From: Nitratireductor indicus C115
GTDB lineage: Bacteria; Pseudomonadota; Alphaproteobacteria; Rhizobiales; Rhizobiaceae
Reading direction: 5' to 3'
Assembly (NCBI RefSeq): GCF_000300515.1
Contig: NZ_AMSI01000001.1
Span: 186,001 to 250,000, forward strand
DNA: 64,000 bases
Below are positions 16,360-53,420 of this stretch, piece by piece; within the stretch, counting starts at the first letter, position 1; each line of letters begins with the position of its first letter. A program made the translations under genes and the position numbers. The notes beneath the pieces were generated by a model that did no database searches, was not told where the DNA came from, and saw only the letters and a program-made list of their open reading frames with translations.

Positions 16360-17184
16360 TCAGCCGCCGAAGCCGAAGCCGGCGGGCATATCGGTGAGCA
16401 TGACGCCGAACGGCTCGAGGCTCTTGAGGATCCAGGTCTGGTTGTTGCCGATGCGGCGGTTGTATTCCGCCCAGGCCGAAACGAAGCTCTTGAAGGTTTC
16501 GTCCGTACCGTAATTGACCGCGATGACCGACGGTGTGGAGAGAACGGGCGTCGGAACCTTCACCGCGCCGATGGCCGGCGCCTTCTTTGAGATCACCAGA
16601 CCGTTCAGCATGGTGTTGACGAGGGCGTCCGCCTTGCCGGTGGTCACGGCCACGATGGCCTCGTCACGGGTCTTGAAGCGCAGGATGTTCGCCTTGGGAA
16701 GATATTGCTGCGTCATCAGGTCCTGCGCGGAGCCGAGGTCGACGGCGAATGTGTATTGCGGGTCGTTGAGCTCATTCCAGCTCTTGCCGTTCAGTTCGTC
16801 CTTCGCCGACACCAGCACGAAGCTGTTGTAATAGGTGGGATCGGAGAACGAGACCGACATGGCGCGAACCGGCGTTGCCGTCACGGCGAAGGCCATATCC
16901 ACCTTGCCGCTCTGCACGTCGAGAATGGCGTTGGCCCAGCTGGATTCGACGACTTCGAGCTTCACGTCCAGCGTCTTGGCAATGTCGTTCGCCATGTCGA
17001 TGACAAAGCCCTGCCACTCGCCGGTGCGCGGATCCTTGTTGAAGTAGGGCACCTCGTTGAGGATTGCCGGAATGCGCAGCACGCCGCGCGAGCGGATGTC
17101 GTCGATCGTTCCGGCATGTGCCACGCCGGTCAAAAGCGATAGCGCGACGGTTGCCGCGCCGCAGATCTTGGAAATCAGGTTCAT
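16360..17184 (-). CDS. Polar amino acid ABC transporter substrate-binding protein
   Basis: A 274-residue periplasmic protein of the family-3 (HisJ/GlnH) type. It has a signal peptide ending TGVAHA before GTIDDIRSRGVLRI. Domain features are EWQGFVIDMANDIAK, SGKVDMAFAVTATPVRA and VDLGSAQD. A GGAGG ribosome-binding site precedes the ATG. It is transcribed downstream of the LysR gene on the minus strand, while the matching-type permease and ATPase lie on the plus strand at 24.5-25.9 kb, so the transporter seems to be split across the cluster. Ligand is probably an amino acid handled by the neighbouring enzymes. Confidence 0.9.
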   Translation of the reverse strand: MNLISKICGAATVALSLLTGVAHAGTIDDIRSRGVLRIPAILNEVPYFNKDPRTGEWQGFVIDMANDIAKTLDVKLEVVESSWANAILDVQSGKVDMAFAVTATPVRAMSVSFSDPTYYNSFVLVSAKDELNGKSWNELNDPQYTFAVDLGSAQDLMTQQYLPKANILRFKTRDEAIVAVTTGKADALVNTMLNGLVISKKAPAIGAVKVPTPVLSTPSVIAVNYGTDETFKSFVSAWAEYNRRIGNNQTWILKSLEPFGVMLTDMPAGFGFGG

Positions 17185-17344: not shown

Positions 17345-18274
17345 TCAAAGCGGCGGATGAGAGAACTCGCCGCCGCGCGGCGGATCGAGAACGGGTCCGA
17401 CGAGTTCGCGCTGGCAATCTTCGAAGAGCTGCTGCACCGTTGAATGAGTCTGCAGGAATCCGGCCGTGCCGAAATAGACGCGCACTTCCGGCAGGTTGGT
17501 GAGCTTGGTCGATTTGATTGTCACGTCTTCGGGAGCGATGCACCAGGAGGGGATGATGGAGAAGCCGAGACCTTCCTCTACGCAGCGCTTTACGCTCGAA
17601 CTGCCCGAGGTGGAAATGACCGGCTGCACGATGGCGCCGTCGCGGCTCAGGAAATCGACGGCGAGATTGCGCAGCGTCTGGCCGGGCTCGAAGGTGATGA
17701 AGGGACGTCCCTCGGCCCAGGCCGGAATATCCTGCTGGCTGGGAATATCGCCCCATTCCCGTGGATAGACCAGGCTCAGGCGATAGCTGCCGAGCAGGCG
17801 CTGCGGCACCACCGGATCGCCGAAATAGCGCTCGGAGATGCAGACATCGAGACTGCCGTTCTTGACGAGCTCCGCCAGAACCGTGTCGCGCTCATAGACG
17901 GCGAACTCCATTTCAGGGAAGTTCTCGCGAAACCGGGCCAGTACCTGCGGAAAGAGGTAGAAGAAGATCGCCTGCGGCATGCCCACCCGCAGCGACGAGC
18001 GTTGGTTCTCGATCAGCTTGGTCAGCCGCTCGAGCATGATGTCGAGCTCCGGGTGCAGGAGATTGTAGAGCGCGCGTCCGCGCGGCGTCAGCGCGATGCG
18101 TTTTGCCCCCTGCTCGGATTCGATCAGCTTGCCCTTCAGAATCTGCTCCAGCCGACGCACGTGATTGGCCGCCGACTGGTAGCTCAGGTTCAGCTCGCGT
18201 GCGGCGCCTGAAAAGGACCCGTGCCGGGCGACCTGATAGAAGGTCTGGATGAGCGTGAGGCTTATCTTGGCCAT
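17345..18274 (-). CDS. LysR-family transcriptional regulator
   Basis: A 309-residue LysR-type regulator. The N-terminal winged helix (residues 1-65) shows TLIQTFYQVARHGSFSGAARELNLSYQSAANHVRRLEQ, and the C-terminal periplasmic-binding-like effector domain begins near residue 92 (SSLRVGMPQAIFFYLFPQVLARFRENFP). It is divergent from the D-amino-acid dehydrogenase operon with a 124-bp gap and reads toward the binding-protein gene. It is therefore the likely regulator of the whole 16.3-27 kb cluster. The effector is unknown. Confidence 0.92.
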   Translation of the reverse strand: MAKISLTLIQTFYQVARHGSFSGAARELNLSYQSAANHVRRLEQILKGKLIESEQGAKRIALTPRGRALYNLLHPELDIMLERLTKLIENQRSSLRVGMPQAIFFYLFPQVLARFRENFPEMEFAVYERDTVLAELVKNGSLDVCISERYFGDPVVPQRLLGSYRLSLVYPREWGDIPSQQDIPAWAEGRPFITFEPGQTLRNLAVDFLSRDGAIVQPVISTSGSSSVKRCVEEGLGFSIIPSWCIAPEDVTIKSTKLTNLPEVRVYFGTAGFLQTHSTVQQLFEDCQRELVGPVLDPPRGGEFSHPPL

Positions 18275-18321: not shown

Positions 18322-18364
18322 CGATACAAATTTCGTGAACTTGCAAGGCCGTCATCTTGTATCG
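18322..18364. promoter_or_regulatory. Inverted repeat in LysR / dehydrogenase divergent promoter
   Basis: CGATACAA (18322-18329) and TTGTATCG (18357-18364) form a perfect 8-bp inverted repeat with a 27-bp spacer in the gap between the LysR gene and the divergent operon. Paired distant half-sites of this sort fit a LysR-type tetramer contacting recognition and activation sites. Confidence 0.5.
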
Positions 18365-18398: not shown

Positions 18399-19610
18399 AT
18401 GACAACCATCCCGGTTTGCGCGATGAGAGCCCGTTCACTTTCCAGTCTTCCGTCCGCCGTCGTTATCGTCGGTTCGGGCATTGTGGGCGCCGCCACGGCC
18501 TATTTCCTGGCGCGGCGCGGGATCGAGGTCCGTCTCGTGGAGGCCGTCGCGCCCGCAGCTGAAGCGACCGGAGCAGCCGATGGCGCGGTGTCGGTTGCCA
18601 GCAAGCGACCAGGCCCCATGATGGAAGCTGCTCTGGCGGGTGTCCGCCTCTATCGTGAACTGGAATCGGAGGGCCTGTTCTCCGGCTTCTTCAAGACGCG
18701 CTCGACCTTCATCGTTGCGGCCTCACAGGCCGAATGCGCCGTTCTGGAAGCACATTCCGCTGCGCTGGCGGGTGCTGGTGTCCGCATCGATATCCTCCAG
18801 CATGAAGAGCTTCGCCAGCGCATGCCTGCTGTGTCGGGCGAGGCGATGATGGCTGTCGAGGTTCATGATGAAGGCCATGCCATCGGTTATCAGATCGTCC
18901 ACCGCCTTCTCACGGCGGCGGGCATCGTCGTCCATCGCGGCGCAGTGGTGGAAGGCTTCCTCCCGTCATCGAGCGGCAATGGCGTTCGCGGTGTGATGAC
19001 GAAGCATGGCCCTGTCGAGGGTGACGCGGTCGTGGTCGCCGCCGGCACGGGCTCGGGGGCCTTGCTCGGCTTTTCCGATGTGCTGACGCCGCGCAAGGGC
19101 CAGCTTCTGGTGACCGAGCGCGCGCCTGAGCTGAATGCCGGTCTGCCAGGGGCCATCATGTCAGGGCGCTATCTTCTGTCCAAGGGAAGCCAGAATTCGG
19201 GACATGGTGCGCCCGCGCGCGGGCTTGGCCTGGTCATCGACCCGCTGCGCACCGGCCAGTTTCTGATCGGCGGGACCCGCGAGGATCATGGCGACCGCAC
19301 GCTCAACGATGTGGAGGCCGTTGCAAAGATACTGCGCGATGCCGTGGCGCTTCTGCCGGGCCTTGCAAATGTGCGCCTTCTGCGCAGCTTCGCAGGCAGC
19401 CGCACGGCGGTTGCCGACGGGCTTCCCCTGATCGGCCGCGTTCCAGGTCGCGACAATCTTTTTGTGGCGACCGGTTTCGAAGGCGATGGCATCTGCCTTG
19501 GCCCGCTTACGGGCAAGGTGGTTGCCGATCTCGTTTGCGGCGAAGCTCCTTCGCTTGACCTGCGTCCGTTCGATCCCGCCCGTTTCGGTGCATGCGAGGT
19601 GGCGGCATGA
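18399..19610 (+). CDS. FAD-dependent D-amino acid dehydrogenase, beta-type subunit
   Basis: A 403-residue DadA/glycine-oxidase-fold flavoprotein. The FAD motif is VVIVGSGIVGAATAYFLARRGIEV near residue 20, and the C-terminal FAD contacts appear as RSFAGSRTAVADGLPLIGRVPG and VATGFEGDGICLGPLTGK. It is followed without gaps by a small 2Fe-2S protein and a large FAD/NAD protein, which together match the three-subunit D-hydroxyproline/D-amino-acid dehydrogenase type described from Pseudomonas. This subunit would carry the amino-acid oxidation site. It overlaps the next gene as ATGA at 19607-19610. The start at 18399 is preceded by a weak GGGG site; ATG 18423 is possible. Confidence 0.82.
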   Translation: MTTIPVCAMRARSLSSLPSAVVIVGSGIVGAATAYFLARRGIEVRLVEAVAPAAEATGAADGAVSVASKRPGPMMEAALAGVRLYRELESEGLFSGFFKTRSTFIVAASQAECAVLEAHSAALAGAGVRIDILQHEELRQRMPAVSGEAMMAVEVHDEGHAIGYQIVHRLLTAAGIVVHRGAVVEGFLPSSSGNGVRGVMTKHGPVEGDAVVVAAGTGSGALLGFSDVLTPRKGQLLVTERAPELNAGLPGAIMSGRYLLSKGSQNSGHGAPARGLGLVIDPLRTGQFLIGGTREDHGDRTLNDVEAVAKILRDAVALLPGLANVRLLRSFAGSRTAVADGLPLIGRVPGRDNLFVATGFEGDGICLGPLTGKVVADLVCGEAPSLDLRPFDPARFGACEVAA

Positions 19611-19861
19611 GCGGCGCGACCTTCTTCTGGATGGGCCGGAGCATCCCTTTTCAAGAGGGCGAAAGCATTGCCTCTGCGCTGGATGCCGCGGGCATGGTGT
19701 CTTTCGGACCGGGCGTGCCACCGTCGCAGATGCGCTTTTTCTGCGGCATCGGCGCGTGCCAGTGCTGCCTTGTGCGCGTCGATGGAGCGACCCGTGAGGC
19801 TTGCCTTACAGCGGCTGCAGCCGGGCTTGAGGTCGAGCCGGCGGGAGGTGCGCATGGCTGA
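19607..19861 (+). CDS. 2Fe-2S ferredoxin-like small subunit of amino acid dehydrogenase
   Basis: An 84-residue protein of the Fer2_4/SoxA-N type. The cluster-binding Cys lie in FFCGIGACQCC and REACL, giving a C-x4-C-x2-C...C pattern with one extra Cys. It overlaps the upstream flavoprotein by 4 bp and the downstream flavoprotein by 8 bp, so the three are co-translated and very likely form one complex. Its role is electron transfer between the two flavin subunits. Confidence 0.85.
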   Translation: MSGATFFWMGRSIPFQEGESIASALDAAGMVSFGPGVPPSQMRFFCGIGACQCCLVRVDGATREACLTAAAAGLEVEPAGGAHG

Positions 19862-21215
19862 TCCGGATGTGCTCATCGTTGGAGCGGGGCCGGCGGGGCT
19901 TGCTGCAGCCGTCGAACTCGCGGCCTCCGGCGTCTCTGTCGAACTGGCCGAACAGCGCGGGACCATTGGCGGCGCGATCTATCGTCAACCCATTTCAGCT
20001 GCGACCCCGGTCCCGCAGGCTGCCGCCGCCAAAGCACGCTGGCGCTCCCTGTCGGCGGCCTTTGACGAAAGCGGGGTCCGGGTTCGCCATGCCACGGTGT
20101 TTCTTGGGATAGAGGCCGATGGGCAGGTTCTTTTGGACGACCGCCGCAGCGGCGGGGTCGTGTGCCTCCGTCCGAAGGTCGTTATTCTCGCCACCGGCGC
20201 GGTCGAGACCGTCCACCCGCGTCCAGGCTGGCATCTCGCGGGCGTGACGACGGCTGGTGGCCTGCAGGTGATGATGAAGGAGCGGGGCCGTGCGCCCGAG
20301 GGTCGCGTCATTCTGGCCGGAAACGGCCCCTTGCTGATTGCGGTTGCAGCGCAGATGGCGCGCCTCGGCAATCCACCCGTTGCGGTGGTTGAGGCGGGCG
20401 ATCCTTTCCGCCGACCCGCCGCCGGCCTCGGATTGCTCGCCTTTCCGGGACTGTTGCGCGAAGCGGCAGGCTACGTCCTTGACGTCAAACGCCACCGTGT
20501 ACCCTGGCTGCGCGGAACCCGGCTTGCCGCCATCGAACCCCAAGGAGAAGGTTTCGCCGTCACCCTGGAGGATGCGCGTGGAACCCGGCGGATGGAGGTT
20601 GATCGCGTCGCCTTGCACGATGGCATCAGGCCGAACGATTTCGGTTTGCCGCAGGTCGGCGGACGCGGTGAGGGGCCGTTGGTTCTTCATGCCGGCGATT
20701 GCCGCGAAGCGCTCGGTGCGCCGGCAGCCGGGGCCGATGGCCATCGTGCCGCCCGCGAGGCGATCCGCCATCTTGGTGCGGACCGCACGGCCAATTCGCG
20801 GGAAGGCCGCGACATCGCGCGTTACCGCAAGGCGCAGGCACTGCTTGCAAGGCTCTTTGCGCCTTTGCCCGAGGCGCTGCCGTTTGAAAACCTTCCTGAT
20901 GAAACCCTCCTCTGCCGCTGCGAGGGACGGACGGTCGGTGATCTGCGCGCTCTCTGCGAGATGCCGGATCGGCTGACGGGTCGCGAGGTCAAGCACAATG
21001 GGCGTTTTGCTATGGGGGCATGCCAGGGACGCTTCTGCGCGGCCAACACGGCAGTGCTGATGGCGCGCATGCGCCCCGAAGCGCCTGCGCCGACACCTGT
21101 GGATCTGACCGGCCGCCGCTGGCCGGCACGACCTGTTTCCATTGGCGCGCTGATGCAGGCAGCACCCGAAAACACCGATCAAGACAAAGAAATGACTGAC
21201 GAGGTTCACAAATGA
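19854..21215 (+). CDS. NAD(P)/FAD-dependent oxidoreductase, alpha-type subunit with BFD-like domain
   Basis: A 453-residue protein. The N-terminal FAD motif is VLIVGAGPAGLAAAVELAASGVSV, an ATGAVET motif follows, and a second nucleotide site shows VILAGNGPLLIAVAAQMARLG near residue 145. The C-terminal region has LLCRCEGRTVGDLRALCE and GACQGRFCA, a BFD-like 2Fe-2S domain. This layout matches the large subunit of heteromeric D-hydroxyproline, opine or cyanide-forming dehydrogenases. The ATG at 19854 overlaps the small subunit. It likely passes electrons onward to the respiratory chain. The overlap with the next gene is ATGA at 21212-21215. Confidence 0.83.
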   Translation: MADPDVLIVGAGPAGLAAAVELAASGVSVELAEQRGTIGGAIYRQPISAATPVPQAAAAKARWRSLSAAFDESGVRVRHATVFLGIEADGQVLLDDRRSGGVVCLRPKVVILATGAVETVHPRPGWHLAGVTTAGGLQVMMKERGRAPEGRVILAGNGPLLIAVAAQMARLGNPPVAVVEAGDPFRRPAAGLGLLAFPGLLREAAGYVLDVKRHRVPWLRGTRLAAIEPQGEGFAVTLEDARGTRRMEVDRVALHDGIRPNDFGLPQVGGRGEGPLVLHAGDCREALGAPAAGADGHRAAREAIRHLGADRTANSREGRDIARYRKAQALLARLFAPLPEALPFENLPDETLLCRCEGRTVGDLRALCEMPDRLTGREVKHNGRFAMGACQGRFCAANTAVLMARMRPEAPAPTPVDLTGRRWPARPVSIGALMQAAPENTDQDKEMTDEVHK

Positions 21216-22609
21216 TGCAGACGCAACGCGTAACCGTTTCCGCTCACAAGGCGGCCGTCGTCCGCAACCCCTTCGATGGCTCCCTTGTCGGTGAGGTCGT
21301 CGAGGCAGCGCCCGCCGAAATCTCGGCTGCGGTTCTCCGCGCCAGAGGTGCCGGGCATGATTTCCGCCATTCCACTCCGGCCGAACGCCGTGCGATGCTC
21401 AATGCGCTGGCTGCCGAGATCGCTTCGGATGCGGAAAATCTGGCGCGCATCATCTCCTCGGAGATGGGGAAGACCATTCGCGAAGCGCGCAATGAGGTGC
21501 GCCGCGCGCAGAACACGCTGAAGCTCTCCGGCGATGCAGCGACCTTCCTCGATGGTGAAGTGCTCAACTGCGCAATCGTCGAGGGCGGTGCCCGGCGGCA
21601 GGCGATGGTGACCTACGAGCCCGTCGGCGTCATCGGTGCGATAACCCCGTTCAACTACCCGCTCAATCTTCTCTGCCACAAGCTGGGCCCGGCAATCGCC
21701 GCTGGCAATGCGGTGGTGGCAAAACCGTCGCCCAAGGCGCCGCTGGCGGCTGCCCGCCTGCGCGAACTGGCCTTGAAGGCCGGTTGGCCGGACCATCTCT
21801 TCCAGATCGTTCAGGGTGGTGCCGAGGCGGCGCTGGCGCTCGTTTCCGCGCAGATCGACCTCCTCTCCTTCACGGGTGGTCCAGCGGCCGGCCTTGCTCT
21901 CAAGAATGCCAGCGGCCTCGTCCGATGCCTGATGGAGCTTGGCGGCAACGACCCGCTTTTCGTGCTGCCCGACGCCGATCTCGACAAGGCGGTGGCCACC
22001 ACCATCGGTCACCGTTTCGAGATCGCCGGACAGAGCTGCGCCGCGGTGAAGAAACTCTACCTCCACCGCGACATCGAAAAGACCTTCACCGAAAAGCTGC
22101 TCGCTGCCGTGGATGCGGTCGAGTTCGGCGATCCCTCGCGGGACGATACGGATATGGGAACCGTGATCGACCTTGCCGCCGCACAAACGGTGGCGGAGCG
22201 GGTCGAGGCGACGCTCGCCTCCGGCGCGCGCCTTTTGCATGGGGGCACCCATGATGGGACCCTCTTCGCTCCGACCGTGATTTCCGATGTGGCGCCTCAT
22301 GCGCCGGTTATCGCCGACGAGACGTTCGGCCCCATCATCGCCATCCGCAGCTTCACCGATGCGGGCGAGGCGATCGCCGAAGTGAACGCCGGGGCCTATG
22401 GGCTCCAGGCGGGTGTTTTCACCAACGATCACGCGCTGATCAAGCGCTTCTCCCGCGATCTGATCGTGGGTGGCGTGATGATCAACGAAGGTCCGGATTT
22501 CAGGGCGGAGCATGTGCCTTTCGGCGGCGTCAAGCGCAGTGGTCTCGGGCGCGAGGGGGTGCGGATCGCCCTGCGCGAGATGTCGGAACCCAAAGTGGTG
22601 ATCGACTGA
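21212..22609 (+). CDS. Aldehyde dehydrogenase (NAD(P)-dependent)
   Basis: A 465-residue ALDH-superfamily enzyme. Visible are VGVIGAITPFNYPLNLLCHKLGPAIAAGNAVVAKPS near residue 130, the catalytic Glu in MELGGNDP near 247, the nucleophile Cys in GQSCAAVKK near 280, and the C-terminal PFGGVKRSGLGREG. It overlaps the dehydrogenase alpha subunit (ATGA), so it is part of the same operon. It probably oxidises a semialdehyde derived from the amino acid, such as alpha-ketoglutarate semialdehyde or aminoadipate semialdehyde; the sequence alone does not distinguish these. Confidence 0.88.
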   Translation: MMQTQRVTVSAHKAAVVRNPFDGSLVGEVVEAAPAEISAAVLRARGAGHDFRHSTPAERRAMLNALAAEIASDAENLARIISSEMGKTIREARNEVRRAQNTLKLSGDAATFLDGEVLNCAIVEGGARRQAMVTYEPVGVIGAITPFNYPLNLLCHKLGPAIAAGNAVVAKPSPKAPLAAARLRELALKAGWPDHLFQIVQGGAEAALALVSAQIDLLSFTGGPAAGLALKNASGLVRCLMELGGNDPLFVLPDADLDKAVATTIGHRFEIAGQSCAAVKKLYLHRDIEKTFTEKLLAAVDAVEFGDPSRDDTDMGTVIDLAAAQTVAERVEATLASGARLLHGGTHDGTLFAPTVISDVAPHAPVIADETFGPIIAIRSFTDAGEAIAEVNAGAYGLQAGVFTNDHALIKRFSRDLIVGGVMINEGPDFRAEHVPFGGVKRSGLGREGVRIALREMSEPKVVID

Positions 22610-22620
22610 GGGGGAGAGCC

Positions 22621-23370
22621 ATGCGGATCGCTGTTTTCGGCGCGTCGGGGCGGGTCGGCACGAAGCTGGTGGAGCTGGTTCTTGCCAATCCGGGGTTGGA
22701 CCTGGTGGCTGCTCTTGTCTCTCCGGGGTCGCGGCTGGTCGGTTCGCCCGTTGCGGGCGGCAGCCTGGAATACCGCCCGGCCGAAGCGGCGATGAACACG
22801 CATAACGACGTGATGATCGACTTTTCCACGCCCTCTGCGAGTCTGGCTTTGCAGAAAGATGTGGGCACCAAACCCATCCCGATGGTGATCGGCACCACCG
22901 GCTTTTCACCGGAGGAGCAGGAACGCCTGATCGAGTGGTCCACTCATCGCCCGCTTCTCGTCAGCGCCAATTTCGCCCGTGGGTTCGAAGCCTTCCGCCT
23001 GGGCGCGGTGGAGTTTGCCGGGCGGATGCCGGACGCGGAAGCATCCGTCGGCGAGATTTATCACGCCCGCAAGAAGAACGAACCTTCAGGCACGTCGCGA
23101 TTGCTGGCACGCGATCTTTTCGAGAAACGCAGCCGGACGATGGGCTTTGCAGCGCCTGAACCGCCGGTTTCCGTGCGCCGGGAAGGCGACACGGTGGGCG
23201 TCAACGAGGTGCGTTTCGACATGGGATCGGCCGAGCTGGTCATGACCTACCGGGTTCATGCGCTGGCGGCCTATGCCGAGGGCGCTTTGGCGGCGGCCCA
23301 ATGGCTGGTGTCCCGCAATGGCGGTCCCGGGCTTTACAGCCTCGCGGACAGCCTGGCCGGAAAAGGATGA
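22621..23370 (+). CDS. DapB-like (dihydrodipicolinate reductase family) protein with altered catalytic site
   Basis: A 249-residue protein with the DapB layout: Rossmann start VFGASGRVGTKLVELV, GTTGFS near residue 91, SANFARGF near 115, and the substrate loop at 144-159. In DapB that loop carries two adjacent His, a Lys and PSGT. Here it reads Y147-H148, K151 and P155-S156-G157-T158, so the position of the usual general acid (E. coli His159) is Tyr while the rest is kept. Housekeeping dapB is normally elsewhere and this copy lies between ALDH and DapA-like genes in a catabolic operon. It may reduce a different cyclic imine. Confidence 0.75.
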   Translation: MRIAVFGASGRVGTKLVELVLANPGLDLVAALVSPGSRLVGSPVAGGSLEYRPAEAAMNTHNDVMIDFSTPSASLALQKDVGTKPIPMVIGTTGFSPEEQERLIEWSTHRPLLVSANFARGFEAFRLGAVEFAGRMPDAEASVGEIYHARKKNEPSGTSRLLARDLFEKRSRTMGFAAPEPPVSVRREGDTVGVNEVRFDMGSAELVMTYRVHALAAYAEGALAAAQWLVSRNGGPGLYSLADSLAGKG

Positions 23371-23383
23371 TGAGGACGAAAGG

Positions 23384-24310
23384 ATGACGACGATGAACGA
23401 ACTGGCAAACCGCTTCAAGGGTGTGTTCACCGCGCTGGTCACCCCGTTCAGGGACGGTGCGGTCGACTACGCTGCTTACGATGCTCTGGTCGAACGGCAG
23501 CTTGCGGCCGGCGTCGCAGGCCTCGTGCCGGTTGGTACCACGGGCGAGGCGGCAACACTTTCCGACGAGGAAGCCGAAGAGCTGATCGCACGCACCGTCC
23601 GGCTGGCAAGCGGCCGGGCACTGGTGATGGCAGGCGCCGGCGCCAACGACACGAGCAAGACCGTCGACAAGGTGAAGCGCGCGGAAAGGGCAGGTGCCGA
23701 TGCGCTTCTGATTGTCACGCCCTATTACAACAAGCCGACCCAGGAAGGGTTGATCGCCCACTATGGCGCTGCCGCCGAGGCAACCGGCTTGCCGATCATG
23801 CTCTATTCGGTTCCCGGCCGTTGCGGCGTCGAGATTGCGCCCGAAACCTGCGCGACCCTGATGCAGCGGCATTCCAATATCGTTGCCATGAAGGAAGCGG
23901 GCGGCGATGCGGGCCGGGTGACGCGCCTGCGCCAGGCATGCGGCGAAAGCCTTATCATTCACTCCGGCGACGATGGGCTTACCCTGCCGTTCCTGTCGCT
24001 CGGCGCGCTCGGTGTCACGAGCGTCGTTGCCAATGTCGCTCCCGGCGAAATGGTGCGTATGGTTGAGGCCTGGCAGAGGGGCGAGACGACGAGGGCGCTC
24101 GCCTTGCACGAGATGATCGCAGAATTGACCGATGCCATGTTCATCGAAAGCAATCCGGGTCCGGTCAAGGCCGCACTTGCCCTGTCGAATCTTGCCGGGC
24201 CCGAAATGAGGCTGCCCATGGTGCCGGTGTCGAGCGGCAATCGCGAGAAGCTTGCCGGTGTGCTCGGGCGCTTTGCCTCCGCCTCCTCCTCCTTCCAAGA
24301 AATGCGCTAA
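23384..24310 (+). CDS. DapA-like (4-hydroxy-tetrahydrodipicolinate synthase family) aldolase/lyase
   Basis: A 308-residue TIM-barrel class I aldolase. The active-site set of true DapA is complete: GTTGEAATLS (Thr52, Thr53), TPYYNKPTQEGL, Tyr141 and Arg146 in YSVPGR, and Schiff-base Lys170 in VAMKEAGGD. Arg in PGR is the residue that binds the substrate carboxylate in DapA. Despite this its setting is catabolic, beside an odd DapB homolog and an amino-acid transporter. It could be a second DHDPS, or a lyase/deaminase for a similar dicarboxylate. The start is ATG 23384 (MTTMNE) or 23393. Compare the different DapA-family gene at 52512. Confidence 0.82.
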   Translation: MTTMNELANRFKGVFTALVTPFRDGAVDYAAYDALVERQLAAGVAGLVPVGTTGEAATLSDEEAEELIARTVRLASGRALVMAGAGANDTSKTVDKVKRAERAGADALLIVTPYYNKPTQEGLIAHYGAAAEATGLPIMLYSVPGRCGVEIAPETCATLMQRHSNIVAMKEAGGDAGRVTRLRQACGESLIIHSGDDGLTLPFLSLGALGVTSVVANVAPGEMVRMVEAWQRGETTRALALHEMIAELTDAMFIESNPGPVKAALALSNLAGPEMRLPMVPVSSGNREKLAGVLGRFASASSSFQEMR

Positions 24311-24363
24311 CGGTCGCGAGAACCTTTGCATTGTCTGTAGCGGATGGACATAGAACAGTGAAC

Positions 24364-24391
24364 GGGCCGCGATTGTCGGCAATTGCGGCCC
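24364..24391 (+). promoter_or_regulatory. Stable stem-loop in the DapA-like/permease gap
   Basis: GGGCCGCGATTG (24364-24375) pairs with CAATTGCGGCCC (24380-24391) through a TCGG tetraloop; the 12-bp stem has one G-U pair. There is no T-tract, so it is more likely an mRNA-stability or attenuation structure than a terminator. It lies just before a short ORF and the permease gene. Confidence 0.5.
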
Positions 24392-24417
24392 AAGAACAAA
24401 GAGAACGGGGAATCAGG

Positions 24418-24495
24418 ATGATCGCCAAGACAAGCAGCGCCTGGCGCCGCCGGAGCATTTCCGACGACGCCATGCCGGCAAGGGGAACGCGATGA
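24418..24495 (+). CDS. Possible 25-codon leader ORF coupled to the permease
   Basis: ATG at 24418 opens a 25-codon frame (MIAKTSSAWRRRSISDDAM, then PARGTR and TGA) whose stop overlaps the permease start as ATGA. It follows an ACGGGG/CAGG purine stretch and a stable hairpin. It has a run of three Arg. It could be a leader peptide that couples translation into the permease, or chance; there is no homology I recognise. Confidence 0.3.
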   Translation: MIAKTSSAWRRRSISDDAMPARGTR

Positions 24496-25157
24496 GCTAC
24501 AACTGGGATTTTCATTCGGTCTGGCAGTATTACGATCTCTTTCTCTGGGGATTGTGGATCAGCGTCGTCTACACCTTCGGGTCCATTTTCTTCGGCGTCA
24601 TCATCGGCTTTCTGACCTGCGCTGCGCGTCTGTCGCACTGGCGCGTTCTCAACGTCATCGCCCGGGTCTACCAGGAGATATTCCGCTGCACCCCGTTGCT
24701 CGTTCAGTTGCTGTGGTTCTATTACGCCTTCCCGCTCCTGATCGGCGCATCGATAGACAATCGCGTCGCGGGCATGCTGACGCTGTCGCTTTATGTCGGC
24801 GCCTTTTATGCGGAGATTTTCAGGGGCGGCATCGTTTCCATCGACCGGGGGCAGCGCGAGGCCGCTGCCGCAATCGGCATGAGCCCCTGGCAGTCGATGA
24901 AGCGCATCATCCTGCCGCAGGCGCTGAAGCGCGTTCTACCCTCGTTCATCAACCAGTCGGTGATCCAGTTCAAGAACACCTCTCTGGTCTCGGTCATTTC
25001 CGTGGCCGACCTTGCCTATATGGCCGCCGTGGTGAACGGGCAGACCTATCGCCCGCTTGAATCCTACACGGTGATGGCTGCGCTCTACATCCTGATGCTC
25101 CTGCCTCTGACGCAGGCTGCCGACTGGATCGAAAAGCGGCTTCGCGTGAGCGACTGA
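24492..25157 (+). CDS. Polar amino acid ABC transporter permease (HisM/GlnP type)
   Basis: A 221-residue inner-membrane permease. It shows the N-terminal SVVYTFGSIFFGVIIGFLTCAARLS segment, TPLLVQLLWFYYAFP, and the EAA loop QREAAAAIGMSPWQSMKRIILPQALKRVLPSFINQSVIQFKNTSL. Only one permease gene is present, so the pore is presumably a homodimer. It pairs with the ATPase that follows 8 bp later and with a family-3 binding protein, probably the one at 16360. Confidence 0.92.
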   Translation: MSYNWDFHSVWQYYDLFLWGLWISVVYTFGSIFFGVIIGFLTCAARLSHWRVLNVIARVYQEIFRCTPLLVQLLWFYYAFPLLIGASIDNRVAGMLTLSLYVGAFYAEIFRGGIVSIDRGQREAAAAIGMSPWQSMKRIILPQALKRVLPSFINQSVIQFKNTSLVSVISVADLAYMAAVVNGQTYRPLESYTVMAALYILMLLPLTQAADWIEKRLRVSD

Positions 25158-25165
25158 GTGGAGGC

Positions 25166-25945
25166 ATGACCATGAACGCACAAGCACGGAATTCCACCCC
25201 CATCATCGAAGCGCTGTCCCTGCATAAGAGCTATGGCAAGCACGAGGTGTTGAAAGGGCTTGATCTCAGCCTCGACCGCGGTGAGGTGGTGGCTCTGATC
25301 GGCCCCTCCGGTTCGGGAAAGTCGACCTTTATTCGCTGCCTCAACATGATGGAAATCCCCACGGGCGGCACGGTGCGCTTTCGCCAGAAGACGGTCGGCG
25401 ATCATTTCCGCGACAAGGGCGGGGAGATTGGCATCGGCACGCTGCGGCGCCATGTCGGTATGGTCTTCCAGCACTTCAACCTGTTTCCGCACAAGACGGT
25501 GCTGCAGAACGTGACCGAAGGTCCGATCGTGGTCTGCAAGACCCCGAGAAAGGAAGCCGAGGAGCGGGCAATGGACCTCCTGTCCCAGGTCGGACTGGCG
25601 GAGAAGCACGGTGCCTATCCAAACCATCTATCAGGCGGGCAGAAGCAGCGCGTGGCCATCGCCCGTGCCCTTGCCATGGAGCCGGAAGTGCTTCTCCTCG
25701 ATGAGGTGACGAGCGCTCTAGACCCGGAACTGGTCGGGGAGGTTCTGTCCGTGATCCGGGGGTTGGCGGAAAAGGGTATGACCATGGCCATCGTCACCCA
25801 TGAAATGGCTTTCGCGGCGGATGTCGCCAGTCGCGTCCTGTTTCTCGATCAGGGCGTCATAGCCGAGTCCGGATCGGCAGATCAGGTCATTCTCAACCCG
25901 CAGAACCCCCGCCTTCAGGGGTTCGTTTCCCGGTTCAGGGGGTGA
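25166..25945 (+). CDS. Amino acid ABC transporter ATPase (HisP/GlnQ type)
   Basis: A 259-residue ATPase with Walker A GPSGSGKST near residue 45, Q-loop VFQHFNLFPHKTVLQNVTEGP, signature LSGGQKQRVAIARALAMEP, Walker B VLLLDEVTSALDPELVGEVL and a His switch in VTHEM. All motifs are intact. Its stop overlaps the GTG at 25942 and lies 5 bp before the ATG of the next gene. It powers the amino-acid transporter of the cluster. Confidence 0.94.
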   Translation: MTMNAQARNSTPIIEALSLHKSYGKHEVLKGLDLSLDRGEVVALIGPSGSGKSTFIRCLNMMEIPTGGTVRFRQKTVGDHFRDKGGEIGIGTLRRHVGMVFQHFNLFPHKTVLQNVTEGPIVVCKTPRKEAEERAMDLLSQVGLAEKHGAYPNHLSGGQKQRVAIARALAMEPEVLLLDEVTSALDPELVGEVLSVIRGLAEKGMTMAIVTHEMAFAADVASRVLFLDQGVIAESGSADQVILNPQNPRLQGFVSRFRG

Positions 25946-25950
25946 TTGGA

Positions 25951-27027
25951 ATGCAGCCGTTCAAGGTCTCGATCTTCGGCGCGGGCAAGGTGGGCGCGGC
26001 CCTTGCGGGCGCGCTTGCCGGAAGGCCGGGTTTTGCGGTCGAGGTGATCGACTGTTCCGAAGATGCGATAGACCGGCTGCGCGGTCTCGACCTGCCGGTG
26101 GGTGTGCGTTCCTATGGCTATCGCGATGAATTGCCCTCGCTTCTGGCGGGCTGCGATGCGGTGGTGGCTGCTGTGCCCGAGGCCGCTCGTCCGGAAATCG
26201 CCGCAGCGGCTGTGCAGGCAGGTGCACATTATCTCGATTTCTCGCCGGCCCGCGAGCGCATGCGTGAAATTCTGGCACCGCTCGCGCAACGTCGCGCCGT
26301 AATGATGGGATGCGGCGTTTCGCCGGGGGTCATCGATAATGTCGCGACAGGTCTTCTGGAAACCCTTGCGCCGGTCAGCGACCTTACCATTCGCGTCGGG
26401 GCCATACCGCGCTTTCCCACGAATCGGCTCGGCTATGGCCATATCTGGAATGTGGGCAGCCTGATCGACGAATACACTCTGCCGAGCGCGGCGTTGCGGG
26501 ACGGGCAGGCGGTGAACCTTGCGCCGCTCGAGGAGTATGAGCAGATTCGCATCGACGGCGTGACCTATGAGGGGTTTGTAACCTCCGGCGGCTTGGAGGA
26601 CCTTTCGCTTCTGGCCGAGGCAGGACCGCGCAACATCACCTTCAAGACCCTGCGCTATCCCGGACATCTGGATTACATGCGCTTTCTGCTCGATGATCTT
26701 GGTCTTCGGAACCGGCGCGACATGCTGCGCACGCTTCTGATGAACGGCTTGCCGGAAATCGCTGACGACGTGCTCGTCCTTGCCGTGACGGCGAAGGGAA
26801 TGCGGGATGGAAACTCGTGCGAGAAGACGGTGGTCCACCGCTTCCAGCCTGAGGGTGAAGACGGCCCGTTCAACGCCCTGAGCTCGGTTGCCGCCGGCTA
26901 TGCGGCAAGCCTGCTATCGCGCCTTCGCGCAGGTGAAATCGCGAAGGCGGGCTTCGTCGCTCATCATCGCTTGAAGGCGTCCGAGCTTCTCAGCGGCGAG
27001 TTTTTGGGGCCGCTTCTCAAGGCCTAG
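25951..27027 (+). CDS. Saccharopine/lysine dehydrogenase-like oxidoreductase
   Basis: A 358-residue protein with the Rossmann start VSIFGAGKVGAALAGALAG followed by the saccharopine-dehydrogenase-type domain (VVAAVPEAARPEIAAAAVQAGAHYLDFSPAR, MGCGVSPGVIDNVATGLLE, TLRYPGHLDYMRFLLDDLG). The closest described functional relatives that I know are L-lysine 6-dehydrogenases and saccharopine reductases. It closes the transporter operon. It may form or reduce a cyclic or semialdehyde intermediate of a lysine-like substrate. Start ATG 25951 is preceded by GGGGGTGATTGG; a GTG at 25942, overlapping the ATPase stop, is an alternative. Confidence 0.78.
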   Translation: MQPFKVSIFGAGKVGAALAGALAGRPGFAVEVIDCSEDAIDRLRGLDLPVGVRSYGYRDELPSLLAGCDAVVAAVPEAARPEIAAAAVQAGAHYLDFSPARERMREILAPLAQRRAVMMGCGVSPGVIDNVATGLLETLAPVSDLTIRVGAIPRFPTNRLGYGHIWNVGSLIDEYTLPSAALRDGQAVNLAPLEEYEQIRIDGVTYEGFVTSGGLEDLSLLAEAGPRNITFKTLRYPGHLDYMRFLLDDLGLRNRRDMLRTLLMNGLPEIADDVLVLAVTAKGMRDGNSCEKTVVHRFQPEGEDGPFNALSSVAAGYAASLLSRLRAGEIAKAGFVAHHRLKASELLSGEFLGPLLKA

Positions 27028-52511: not shown

Positions 52512-53420
52512 TCAGGCAGCGAGCTGGGAAAGATCGGGCAATGCAGGCCGTGCGGCGAGCGCATCGCGAACGACCTGTTCCACCCGCTTGCGGTTCTCGC
52601 CGGAAAGCGGCATGCGCGGCATGCGAACATGTTCCGTGGAACCGAGTTCAAGGGCTTCCACCAGCTTGATGTTCTGCACGAGATAAGTGGAGACATCGAG
52701 ATCGAGCAGCGGGCGGAACCAGCGATAGATCGCGCGCGCTTCGTTCCAGCGGCCTGCCTTGGCAAGGCGGTAGATCGCCACCGTTTCGCGCGGGAAGGCG
52801 ACAACGAGGCCGGCCACCCAGCCGACGGCGCCCATGGCAAGCGCCTCGAGCGCAAGATTGTCGACGCCGGTGAAGACGTCGAAGCGGTCGCCGAAATGCG
52901 ACAGGATTTCCGTCGTGCGACGGATATCGTCGGAGGATTCCTTCACGGCGACAAAGCGCTTGTCGGCGGCCAGCTTCTCCATGATCTCGACGGTCACATC
53001 GACGCGATAGGCGACCCGGTTGGAATAGATCATCACCGGCAGGTCACCTGCCTGCGCGACCGCGCTCAGCGTTGCGACCGTTTCTTCCGGATTGGTGTGA
53101 TAGATCGGGCTTGGCACAACCATCAGCCCGGCAGCACCTGCCTTGGCGGCTTTTCTGGCAAGCTCCGCCGCGTCGCGCGTTGCTGCTTCCGCAATGGTCA
53201 GAAGGACAGGCTTGCTGCCGGCCACCGATTGCGCGGTCTTCAGCACCGCAAGGCGCTCCTCATGCGACAGCATGAAGCCTTCGCCAAGGGAGCCGCAGAC
53301 GATCAGGCCGTCGCTGCCGGCTTCCATCTGCAATGCGAAGCAACGCTCCATCTCTTTGTGATCGAGCGTGTCGTCTGTGGTGAACTTCGTGGTGACAGCC
53401 GGAAAAACACCTTTCCACAT
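52512..53420 (-). CDS. DapA-family protein, probable 1-pyrroline-4-hydroxy-2-carboxylate deaminase
   Basis: A 302-residue class I aldolase-fold enzyme. Schiff-base Lys160 lies in VAVKESSDD, with Tyr132 in MIYSNRVAYRV and the GSLGEGFML loop near residue 44. It lacks the GTTGE loop and the PGR arginine of true DapA, which distinguishes it from the gene at 23384. By context it deaminates the D-hydroxyproline dehydrogenase product to alpha-ketoglutarate semialdehyde. The ATG at 53420 follows AGAGGAG; a longer start at 53447 lacks one. It is the first gene of the operon, divergent from the GntR regulator. Confidence 0.85.
   Translation of the reverse strand: MWKGVFPAVTTKFTTDDTLDHKEMERCFALQMEAGSDGLIVCGSLGEGFMLSHEERLAVLKTAQSVAGSKPVLLTIAEAATRDAAELARKAAKAGAAGLMVVPSPIYHTNPEETVATLSAVAQAGDLPVMIYSNRVAYRVDVTVEIMEKLAADKRFVAVKESSDDIRRTTEILSHFGDRFDVFTGVDNLALEALAMGAVGWVAGLVVAFPRETVAIYRLAKAGRWNEARAIYRWFRPLLDLDVSTYLVQNIKLVEALELGSTEHVRMPRMPLSGENRKRVEQVVRDALAARPALPDLSQLAA

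What the first reader, a model, noticed from the sequence alone, without database searches (positions are those of the whole stretch)
18399..27027. Candidate new amino acid catabolic system combining D-amino-acid dehydrogenase, ALDH, DapB-like, DapA-like and lysine-dehydrogenase-like proteins
A three-subunit D-amino-acid dehydrogenase is overlapped by an ALDH gene and followed by DapB and DapA homologs, an amino-acid transporter and a saccharopine/lysine-dehydrogenase-like protein. Hydroxyproline operons use a dehydrogenase, a DapA-family deaminase and an ALDH, but not a DapB homolog or a lysine-type dehydrogenase. Here the DapA protein has true DHDPS residues, not deaminase-like ones. A six-carbon or seven-carbon substrate such as lysine, pipecolate, diaminopimelate or a dipicolinate-type imine is a reasonable guess.
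Basis: partly seen in the sequence, partly recalled or inferred. Interest (0 to 1): 0.78.

Follow-up and report, generated by a model that had tools for sequence, protein, structure and literature searches.

The report
Candidate reverse-lysine-pathway catabolic gene cluster
A conserved, separately regulated set of eleven genes in soil and marine relatives of Rhizobium looks like an uptake-and-breakdown pathway for a diaminopimelate-like amino acid that uses a lysine-synthesis enzyme in reverse to make pyruvate and aspartate; the food molecule itself is not proven.

Summary
The unit recurs in 39 loci. A palindrome, GATACAA-N27-TTGTATC, occurs once in the genome, between regulator and operon. 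The organism has separate biosynthetic dapA and dapB, so this is not its lysine pathway.

DapA2 keeps the catalytic residues of true dihydrodipicolinate synthase. DapB2 is a deep separate clade with the catalytic His replaced by Tyr. Two natural variants narrow the chemistry: one locus lacks the aldehyde dehydrogenase and instead carries extra aspartate-semialdehyde dehydrogenase and aspartate kinase genes plus an aspartase; four clusters lack DapB2.

Best reading: catabolism of a C7 diamino-dicarboxylate (probably diaminopimelate or a hydroxylated form). The flavin trimer and the lysine-dehydrogenase-like enzyme oxidise it, DapA2 acts as a retro-aldolase giving pyruvate and aspartate semialdehyde, and the aldehyde dehydrogenase makes aspartate. 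Substrate, direction and DapB2's role are inferred. I found no description of a dedicated catabolic dihydrodipicolinate synthase of this kind in ten searches of the open-access library.

The parts
16360..17184 (-). periplasmic substrate-binding protein of a polar amino acid ABC importer
   Evidence: best PDB matches are ancestral/extant cyclohexadienyl dehydratases and amino-acid binding proteins, which do not name a ligand; present in 37 of 39 loci, on the operon strand after DapA2 in L043, L044, L047 and L049
17345..18274 (-). LysR-family regulator, divergent from the operon
   Evidence: PF00126/PF03466; 38 of 39 loci
18323..18363 (.). palindrome GATACAA-N27-TTGTATC, likely LysR operator
   Evidence: exact in 31 of 39 intergenic regions; one site in the own genome and one in each of 26 genomes chosen because they have it
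18399..19610 (+). beta subunit (DAO, FAD) of a three-subunit flavin amino/imino acid dehydrogenase
   Evidence: PF01266 185 bits; Arg-X-Trp FMN motif found in 0 of 39 rows
19592..19861 (+). gamma subunit, [2Fe-2S]
   Evidence: PF13510; C-X4-C-X2-C-X11,12-C in 39 of 39 rows
19854..21215 (+). alpha subunit (Pyr_redox, C-X-C...C-X4-C); start site approximate
   Evidence: PF07992; cysteine pairs in 39 of 39 rows; 29% to annotated opine oxidase OoxA
21212..22609 (+). aldehyde dehydrogenase, proposed aspartate semialdehyde to aspartate
   Evidence: PF00171 443 bits; catalytic Cys and Glu motifs in 38 of 38 rows; missing only in L035 (3.5 kb contig) and L038, where asd, aspartate kinase and aspartase lie downstream
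22621..23370 (+). DapB2, divergent dihydrodipicolinate reductase homolog
23384..24310 (+). DapA2, DHDPS homolog proposed to act as retro-aldolase; start site approximate
   Evidence: TIGR00674 310 bits over cut-off 206; catalytic motifs kept in 40 of 40 rows
24492..25157 (+). ABC permease, polar amino acid type
   Evidence: PF00528; EhuC/GlnP/cystine permease models below cut-off
25166..25945 (+). ABC ATPase
   Evidence: PF00005; best NCBIfam model cystine TcyN, 321 of 406 bits needed
25942..27027 (+). saccharopine/lysine-dehydrogenase-like NAD(P) enzyme

Best explanation
An inducible uptake and catabolic pathway for a seven-carbon diamino-dicarboxylic acid, most likely diaminopimelate (DAP) or a hydroxylated DAP, under its own LysR regulator. 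The ABC importer brings it in. The lysine-dehydrogenase-like enzyme (NAD(P)+) and the flavin/iron-sulfur trimer (respiratory acceptor) oxidise the two alpha-amino carbons, giving tetrahydro- and then dihydrodipicolinate-type cyclic imines. These are hydrated to 4-hydroxy-tetrahydrodipicolinate (HTPA), with DapB2 as an auxiliary hydratase, tautomerase or salvage enzyme. DapA2 runs the DHDPS reaction backwards and releases pyruvate and L-aspartate semialdehyde. The ALDH oxidises the semialdehyde to aspartate; one lineage would use Asd plus aspartate kinase in reverse, followed by aspartase. Shown here: gene content, conservation, the single palindrome, DHDPS residues in DapA2, His-to-Tyr in DapB2, the two natural variants. 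Inferred: direction, substrate, order of oxidations, DapB2's job.
For: Unit conserved in 39 loci though rare: 4 of 397 order genomes match the DapB2 profile, own included. Canonical dapA/dapB sit elsewhere. DapA2 has the DHDPS catalytic residues, unlike six other DapA-family proteins aligned from the same genome. L038 lacks the ALDH and carries asd, aspartate kinase, a sodium symporter and aspartase downstream; that genome has another asd-like gene and another aspartate-kinase-like gene (34% identity) elsewhere, so these are extra copies. DapB-less clusters L140, L158, L159, L160 keep the trimer, ALDH, DapA2 with the same residues, importer and SDH-like gene, which leaves the trimer and SDH-like enzyme as the likely oxidants. 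The SDH-like model is nearest L-lysine dehydrogenase; DAP is 6-carboxy-lysine. The ATPase scores best against a cystine model, and an E. coli cystine uptake system is shared with DAP (PMC4383340, one passage).
Against: No enzyme or growth data. The asd/kinase/aspartase variant is a single locus; no second was found in 296 genomes of its family. L038 also lacks the ABC importer and the palindrome and may differ in use. The ALDH's best models are sulfoacetaldehyde, lactaldehyde and phosphonoacetaldehyde dehydrogenases, all below cut-off, so its sequence does not itself name aspartate semialdehyde. Running DHDPS backwards is uphill (chemical reasoning, not computed), and if DapB2 rather than the flavin trimer did the ring oxidation with NAD(P)+ it would be worse. 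DapB2 keeps its dinucleotide-binding motif in 39 of 40 rows, which a pure hydratase would not need. In DapB-less clusters the housekeeping DapB could stand in. No peptidoglycan hydrolase or DAP epimerase was recognised as a conserved neighbour; that check clustered flanking ORFs by homology and was not an annotation. The carbon skeleton rests on enzyme-family reasoning.
Confidence: 0.4

Rival explanations
1. Lysine or pipecolate catabolism: the SDH-like enzyme is a lysine 6-dehydrogenase, the trimer handles D-lysine or pipecolate, and the ALDH oxidises aminoadipate semialdehyde.
Against: Leaves DapA2, with the DHDPS residues, without a job. ALDH scores only 214 of 730 bits against the piperideine-6-carboxylate dehydrogenase model. 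Does not explain asd plus aspartate kinase plus aspartase in the ALDH-less locus L038.
Confidence: 0.12
2. Catabolism of an opine-like secondary amine: the trimer or SDH-like enzyme splits a C-N bond, releasing aspartate semialdehyde or pyruvate; DapA2 then acts on the released aldehyde.
Against: Arg-X-Trp FMN motif of the beta subunit in 0 of 39 rows, although opine and D-hydroxyproline dehydrogenases are described with it. Gives no reason for DHDPS to be in every cluster seen, and DapB-less clusters would make dead-end HTPA.
Confidence: 0.14
3. Hydroxy-imino-acid route like hydroxyproline catabolism: trimer oxidises a D-hydroxy-imino acid such as 4-hydroxypipecolate, and DapA2 deaminates or cleaves it (pyruvate plus 3-aminopropanal, then beta-alanine).
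For: Same three enzyme families (DAO type, DHDPS family, ALDH) as 4-hydroxyproline operons (PMC4113996, passages). DapB-less clusters need only these plus SDH.
Against: DapA2 keeps the DHDPS Arg in 40 of 40 rows. Asd/aspartate kinase would be useless for 3-aminopropanal or ketoglutarate semialdehyde. Explains neither SDH-like nor DapB2.
Confidence: 0.12
4. Biosynthetic unit: DapA2 and DapB2 run forward, and SDH or the trimer modifies the tetrahydrodipicolinate to make a lysine- or dipicolinate-type product.
For: Residues of DapA2 are those of the synthetic enzyme; in L038 aspartase, kinase, asd, DapA2 and DapB2 could read as a forward chain.
Against: Binding protein for an ABC importer in 37 of 39 loci, ALDH that would waste aspartate semialdehyde, flavin amino-acid dehydrogenase, no DapB2 in four clusters, DapB2 lacking the catalytic His.
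Confidence: 0.1

Closest known systems
trans-4-hydroxy-L-proline operons (D-Hyp dehydrogenase, Pyr4H2C deaminase, ketoglutarate semialdehyde dehydrogenase)
   Same: DAO-family flavin dehydrogenase, DHDPS-superfamily enzyme, ALDH and transporter in one unit (PMC4113996, passages).
   Different: DapA2 is a DHDPS by residues; no proline-racemase-family epimerase among the ten proteins scanned; DapB2 and an SDH-like dehydrogenase are added; one variant has asd and aspartate kinase.
Flavin-containing opine dehydrogenase OdhABC / Oox / Nox
   Same: beta-gamma-alpha gene order with overlapping ends; gamma-type [2Fe-2S] motif in 39 of 39 rows.
   Different: About 29% identity to annotated OoxA; beta-subunit Arg-X-Trp motif absent in 39 of 39 rows; alpha cysteine pairs 32-33 residues apart rather than the printed 15-20.
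DHDPS/HTPA reductase pair of lysine synthesis (DapA, DapB)
   Same: DapB fold and, for DapA2, the catalytic residues.
   Different: Extra copies in an amino acid uptake operon; DapB2 is a separate clade with His-to-Tyr at the catalytic site and is missing from four clusters.
L-lysine 6-dehydrogenase (PDB 3abi)
   Same: Closest structure and closest PDB sequence match of the SDH-like protein.
   Different: 22% identity over 336 aligned residues. Close homologs follow the unit; 82 plasmid records hold homologs under 60% to L038's copy, the listed more distant ones at 32-36%, and four of those opened lie in other contexts.

Membership tests
4-hydroxy-tetrahydrodipicolinate synthase (DHDPS) | catalytic T-T, Tyr, Tyr, Arg and Schiff-base Lys (numbering and roles recalled) | tested here: met
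   40 of 40 rows, and the own canonical DapA; not in six other family members aligned from the same genome
4-hydroxy-tetrahydrodipicolinate synthase (DHDPS) | curated model score over cut-off | tested here: met
   TIGR00674 310 bits, cut-off 206
4-hydroxy-tetrahydrodipicolinate synthase (DHDPS) | condenses pyruvate with aspartate semialdehyde | not testable with these tools
   needs assay; direction in vivo unknown
HTPA reductase (DapB) | curated equivalog score over cut-off | tested here: not met
   112 bits against cut-off 122; the own canonical copy scores 257
HTPA reductase (DapB) | catalytic His of the HHRHK motif (recalled as His159 in E. coli) | tested here: not met
   Tyr in 39 of 40 rows; in L041 the whole motif differs
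HTPA reductase (DapB) | overall fold and dinucleotide motif | tested here: met
Flavin opine/D-hydroxyproline dehydrogenase trimer | beta-gamma-alpha order and gamma-type [2Fe-2S] motif | tested here: met
   order in window; motif 39 of 39 rows
Flavin opine/D-hydroxyproline dehydrogenase trimer | alpha-subunit motif C-X-C-X15~20-C-X4-C as printed in PMC4575208 | tested here: not met
   cysteine pairs present in 39 of 39 rows, but spacer 33 in 36 rows and 32 in 3
Flavin opine/D-hydroxyproline dehydrogenase trimer | Arg-X-Trp FMN motif in the beta subunit | tested here: not met
   0 of 39 rows
L-lysine 6-dehydrogenase | saccharopine-dehydrogenase-type fold | tested here: met
L-lysine 6-dehydrogenase | oxidises the epsilon-amine of lysine | not testable with these tools
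   needs assay
4-hydroxyproline catabolic operon | DHDPS-family member is the deaminase type | tested here: inconclusive
   residues are those of DHDPS, but no characterised deaminase was aligned
Lysine biosynthetic dapA/dapB | the only dapA/dapB of the organism | tested here: not met
   canonical dapB C1:12992 and dapA C5:345973

The most novel reading that the evidence does not exclude
The cluster is a dedicated diaminopimelate catabolic pathway in which nature runs the first part of lysine biosynthesis backwards: a catabolic dihydrodipicolinate synthase cleaves HTPA to pyruvate and aspartate semialdehyde, and in one lineage aspartate semialdehyde dehydrogenase and aspartate kinase also run in reverse, conserving ATP, before aspartase delivers fumarate. 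The ring oxidation is done by a respiratory flavin trimer, and DapB2 has lost the reductase function.
Probability: 0.3. Interest if true: 0.8.

Novelty: new variant of a known kind. Interest (0 to 1): 0.58.

Why it matters
Diaminopimelate is in the walls of many bacteria (recalled), yet the open-access searches here found no paper on a pathway that degrades it by C-C cleavage. A catabolic, retro-aldol DHDPS would be a new role for an enzyme studied as an antibiotic target (recalled), would mean that genes annotated dapA or dapB on such plasmids are not lysine genes, and would give growth and enzyme tests with clear yes/no outcomes.

Tried and rejected
Rejected: the cluster as a spare lysine pathway (canonical copies elsewhere; importer and ALDH present). 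Rejected as main reading: DapB2 as the essential NAD(P)+-dependent ring oxidant, because four clusters lack it; housekeeping DapB standing in for it is not excluded, and the chromosome of Chelatococcus sp. CO-6 was not searched. Looked for wider regulon members through the palindrome: one site per genome, so no further pathway gene was found. Looked for conserved neighbours outside the unit by clustering flanking ORFs of 39 loci (25 largest groups printed): they look like ABC ATPases, shadow frames and close-relative synteny; no recurrent peptidase or epimerase was recognised. Looked for more loci like L038 in 296 genomes of its family: only itself. The S. meliloti pSymA trimer paralog sits in another operon. 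Distant SDH-like homologs (33-36%) on Azospirillum, Agrobacterium and Ri plasmids lie in other contexts in the four I opened. Literature: ten searches. Searches, on DAP catabolism, returned no paper; the papers were seen as listings only and looked unrelated. Only open-licence PMC papers are held. Passages only were seen of PMC4383340, PMC4575208, PMC9024752 and PMC4113996. first used a wrong iron-sulfur regular expression (16 of 39); one search used the gamma motif printed in PMC4575208 (39 of 39). One search repeated a region already seen.

Full report
What is there. On the minus strand, divergent, lie a LysR regulator (17345-18274) and a substrate-binding protein (16360-17184).

Conservation. 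DNA matches on plasmids of Martelella, Pannonibacter, Ciceribacter and Ensifer carry the same eleven genes in the same order. A genome-contig scan with a DapB2 alignment kept 80 of 311 relatives; the top 35 (L015-L049, 49% identity or more) belong to this unit. With the four plasmid loci that makes 39: DapA2 and DapB2 in 39 of 39; LysR, SDH-like and each trimer subunit in 38; ALDH and binding protein in 37. L035 is a 3.5 kb contig and explains most gaps; L038 is the other. In L043, L044, L047 and L049 the binding-protein gene lies inside the operon, after DapA2. DapB2 was the bait, so its presence in these loci is by construction. The unit is rare: 4 of 397 genomes of the order and 2 of 385 of the class (own genome included) hold DapB2-type genes; the class search listed five matches, three of them at 140-148 bits, which I take for ordinary DapB. 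With a DapA2 profile, 11 of 397 order genomes passed 1e-95; eight of these have the unit or a piece of it (two judged from adjacent DapB2 and DapA2 hits), three do not. Patchy and whole is the pattern of a transferable catabolic island.

Regulation. Between LysR and the operon a palindrome GATACAA-N27-TTGTATC is exact in 31 of 39 intergenic regions (window plus 38 loci); it is missing in L037, L038, L039, L043, L044, L047, L048 and L049. In the window it lies at 18323-18363. It occurs once in the own genome and once in each of 26 genomes chosen because they have it. A dedicated regulator with a one-operon regulon is the simple reading.

Not lysine biosynthesis. The genome has a canonical dapB (C1:12992, 257 bits against 109 for the cluster copy) and a canonical dapA (C5:345973) with the DHDPS residues.

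DapA2. In 40 of 40 aligned rows the Thr-Thr, Tyr, Tyr, Arg and Lys motifs of DHDPS are intact; of seven other DapA-family proteins of the own genome that I aligned (of 16 family matches), only the canonical one shares them. The Arg is recalled as binding the aspartate semialdehyde side. This argues for pyruvate plus aspartate semialdehyde in equilibrium with HTPA, and against a hydroxyproline-type deaminase, though no characterised deaminase was aligned.

DapB2. It is a separate clade (36 rows, support 100/100, branch 1.27), scores below the DapB cut-off, folds like DapB, keeps the dinucleotide motif and the SGT motif in 39 of 40 rows each, but has Tyr where canonical DapB has the catalytic His in 39 of 40 rows. 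In L041 the motif is eroded.

Two natural experiments. First, L038 (Xanthobacteraceae bacterium) has LysR, trimer, DapB2, DapA2 and SDH-like but neither ALDH nor ABC importer, and no palindrome. Downstream follow aspartate-semialdehyde dehydrogenase (asd, 456 bits over cut-off 223), an aspartate kinase-type gene (430 bits on its best full-length model, cut-off 474; 300 over 209 on the general domain model), a sodium symporter and aspartase (718 over 681); upstream of LysR lie TRAP transporter genes. The genome has another asd-like gene and another aspartate-kinase-like gene elsewhere. So where the ALDH is missing, enzymes that can take aspartate semialdehyde to aspartate and fumarate are present. 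This is one locus; no asd, kinase or aspartase homolog was found in the other 44 stretches examined, and 296 family genomes gave no second case. Second, four clusters (Chelatococcus plasmid L140 and three unnamed order members L158-L160, one genus) have everything except DapB2, with the same DapA2 residues. By their handle numbers the three genomes were in the set, where they gave no DapB2 match at 1e-50; the Chelatococcus chromosome was not searched. L164 starts at a contig end and is not counted. DapB2 thus looks auxiliary, and the likely oxidants are the trimer and the SDH-like enzyme. A racemase-like gene sits beside the unit in L140, L160 and L048: the L140 protein passes the Asp/Glu racemase cut-off (35.8 over 31), the other two, 60-64% identical to it, fall just under it (25.4 and 30.2).

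Other parts. The trimer has the beta-gamma-alpha order and the gamma-type iron-sulfur motif of opine and D-hydroxyproline dehydrogenases as described in PMC4575208 (passages), but the beta subunit lacks the Arg-X-Trp FMN motif in 39 of 39 rows and the alpha cysteine pairs are 32-33 residues apart, not 15-20 as printed. The SDH-like model is closest to Pyrococcus L-lysine dehydrogenase, then saccharopine and carboxyspermidine dehydrogenases. The ALDH's best curated models are sulfoacetaldehyde, lactaldehyde and phosphonoacetaldehyde dehydrogenases, all below cut-off. The ATPase scores best against a cystine model; an E. coli cystine uptake system is shared with diaminopimelic acid according to a passage of PMC4383340 citing Leive and Davis. 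This is a weak lead.

Mechanism. Putting these together: uptake; oxidation of the two alpha-amino carbons of a C7 diamino-dicarboxylate by SDH-like and trimer; ring imine hydrated to HTPA; retro-aldol by DapA2 to pyruvate and aspartate semialdehyde; oxidation to aspartate. DapB has been reported as possibly also a dehydratase (title of Devenish 2010 in the reference list of PMC9024752), so DapB2 as hydratase is plausible. A hydroxylated DAP would need fewer steps and would fit the DapB-less clusters best. The reverse DHDPS step is uphill by general chemistry and must be pulled by the ALDH or by Asd plus kinase. I give about 0.55 to 'DapA2 produces aspartate semialdehyde that ends as aspartate' and 0.40 to the full C7 model.

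Novelty. Ten searches of the open-licence library gave no description of such a cluster or of diaminopimelate catabolism by this route; most papers of subscription journals are not held. The components are known families; the combination, the variants and the proposed direction are, as far as these searches reach, new.

Noticed in passing
L041:10001-10735: Aminobacter carboxidus DapB2 has an eroded active-site motif, though the other cluster genes are found beside it.
   Followed up: no
L140:11086-11796, L160:10576-11322, L048:2846-3517: A racemase-like gene (PRK07475 type in L140) is linked to the unit in three lineages; two of the three fall just under the Pfam racemase cut-off.
   Followed up: partly
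L143:8495-11263: A Sinorhizobium meliloti pSymA paralog of the trimer (about 49% in the alpha subunit) sits with LysR, an amidase and an ABC importer: a different catabolic unit.
   Followed up: no
L142:9995-11098 and L144:9995-11098: Distant SDH-like homologs beside an Lrp-type regulator on Ti/Ri plasmids, one near two FAD oxidoreductases.
   Followed up: no
L022:4389-6973: In this locus the DAO and [2Fe-2S] genes are further apart than in the others (starts about 2.6 kb apart against about 1.15 kb), as if something were inserted.
   Followed up: no
window 52566-53414: Another DapA-family gene in the window (174 bits, PF00701), one of 16 family matches in the genome; motifs unlike DHDPS.
   Followed up: partly
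L016: The locus titled Arenimonas (gammaproteobacterium) MAG groups within Rhizobiaceae DapB2 rows; likely a mis-binned contig.
   Followed up: no
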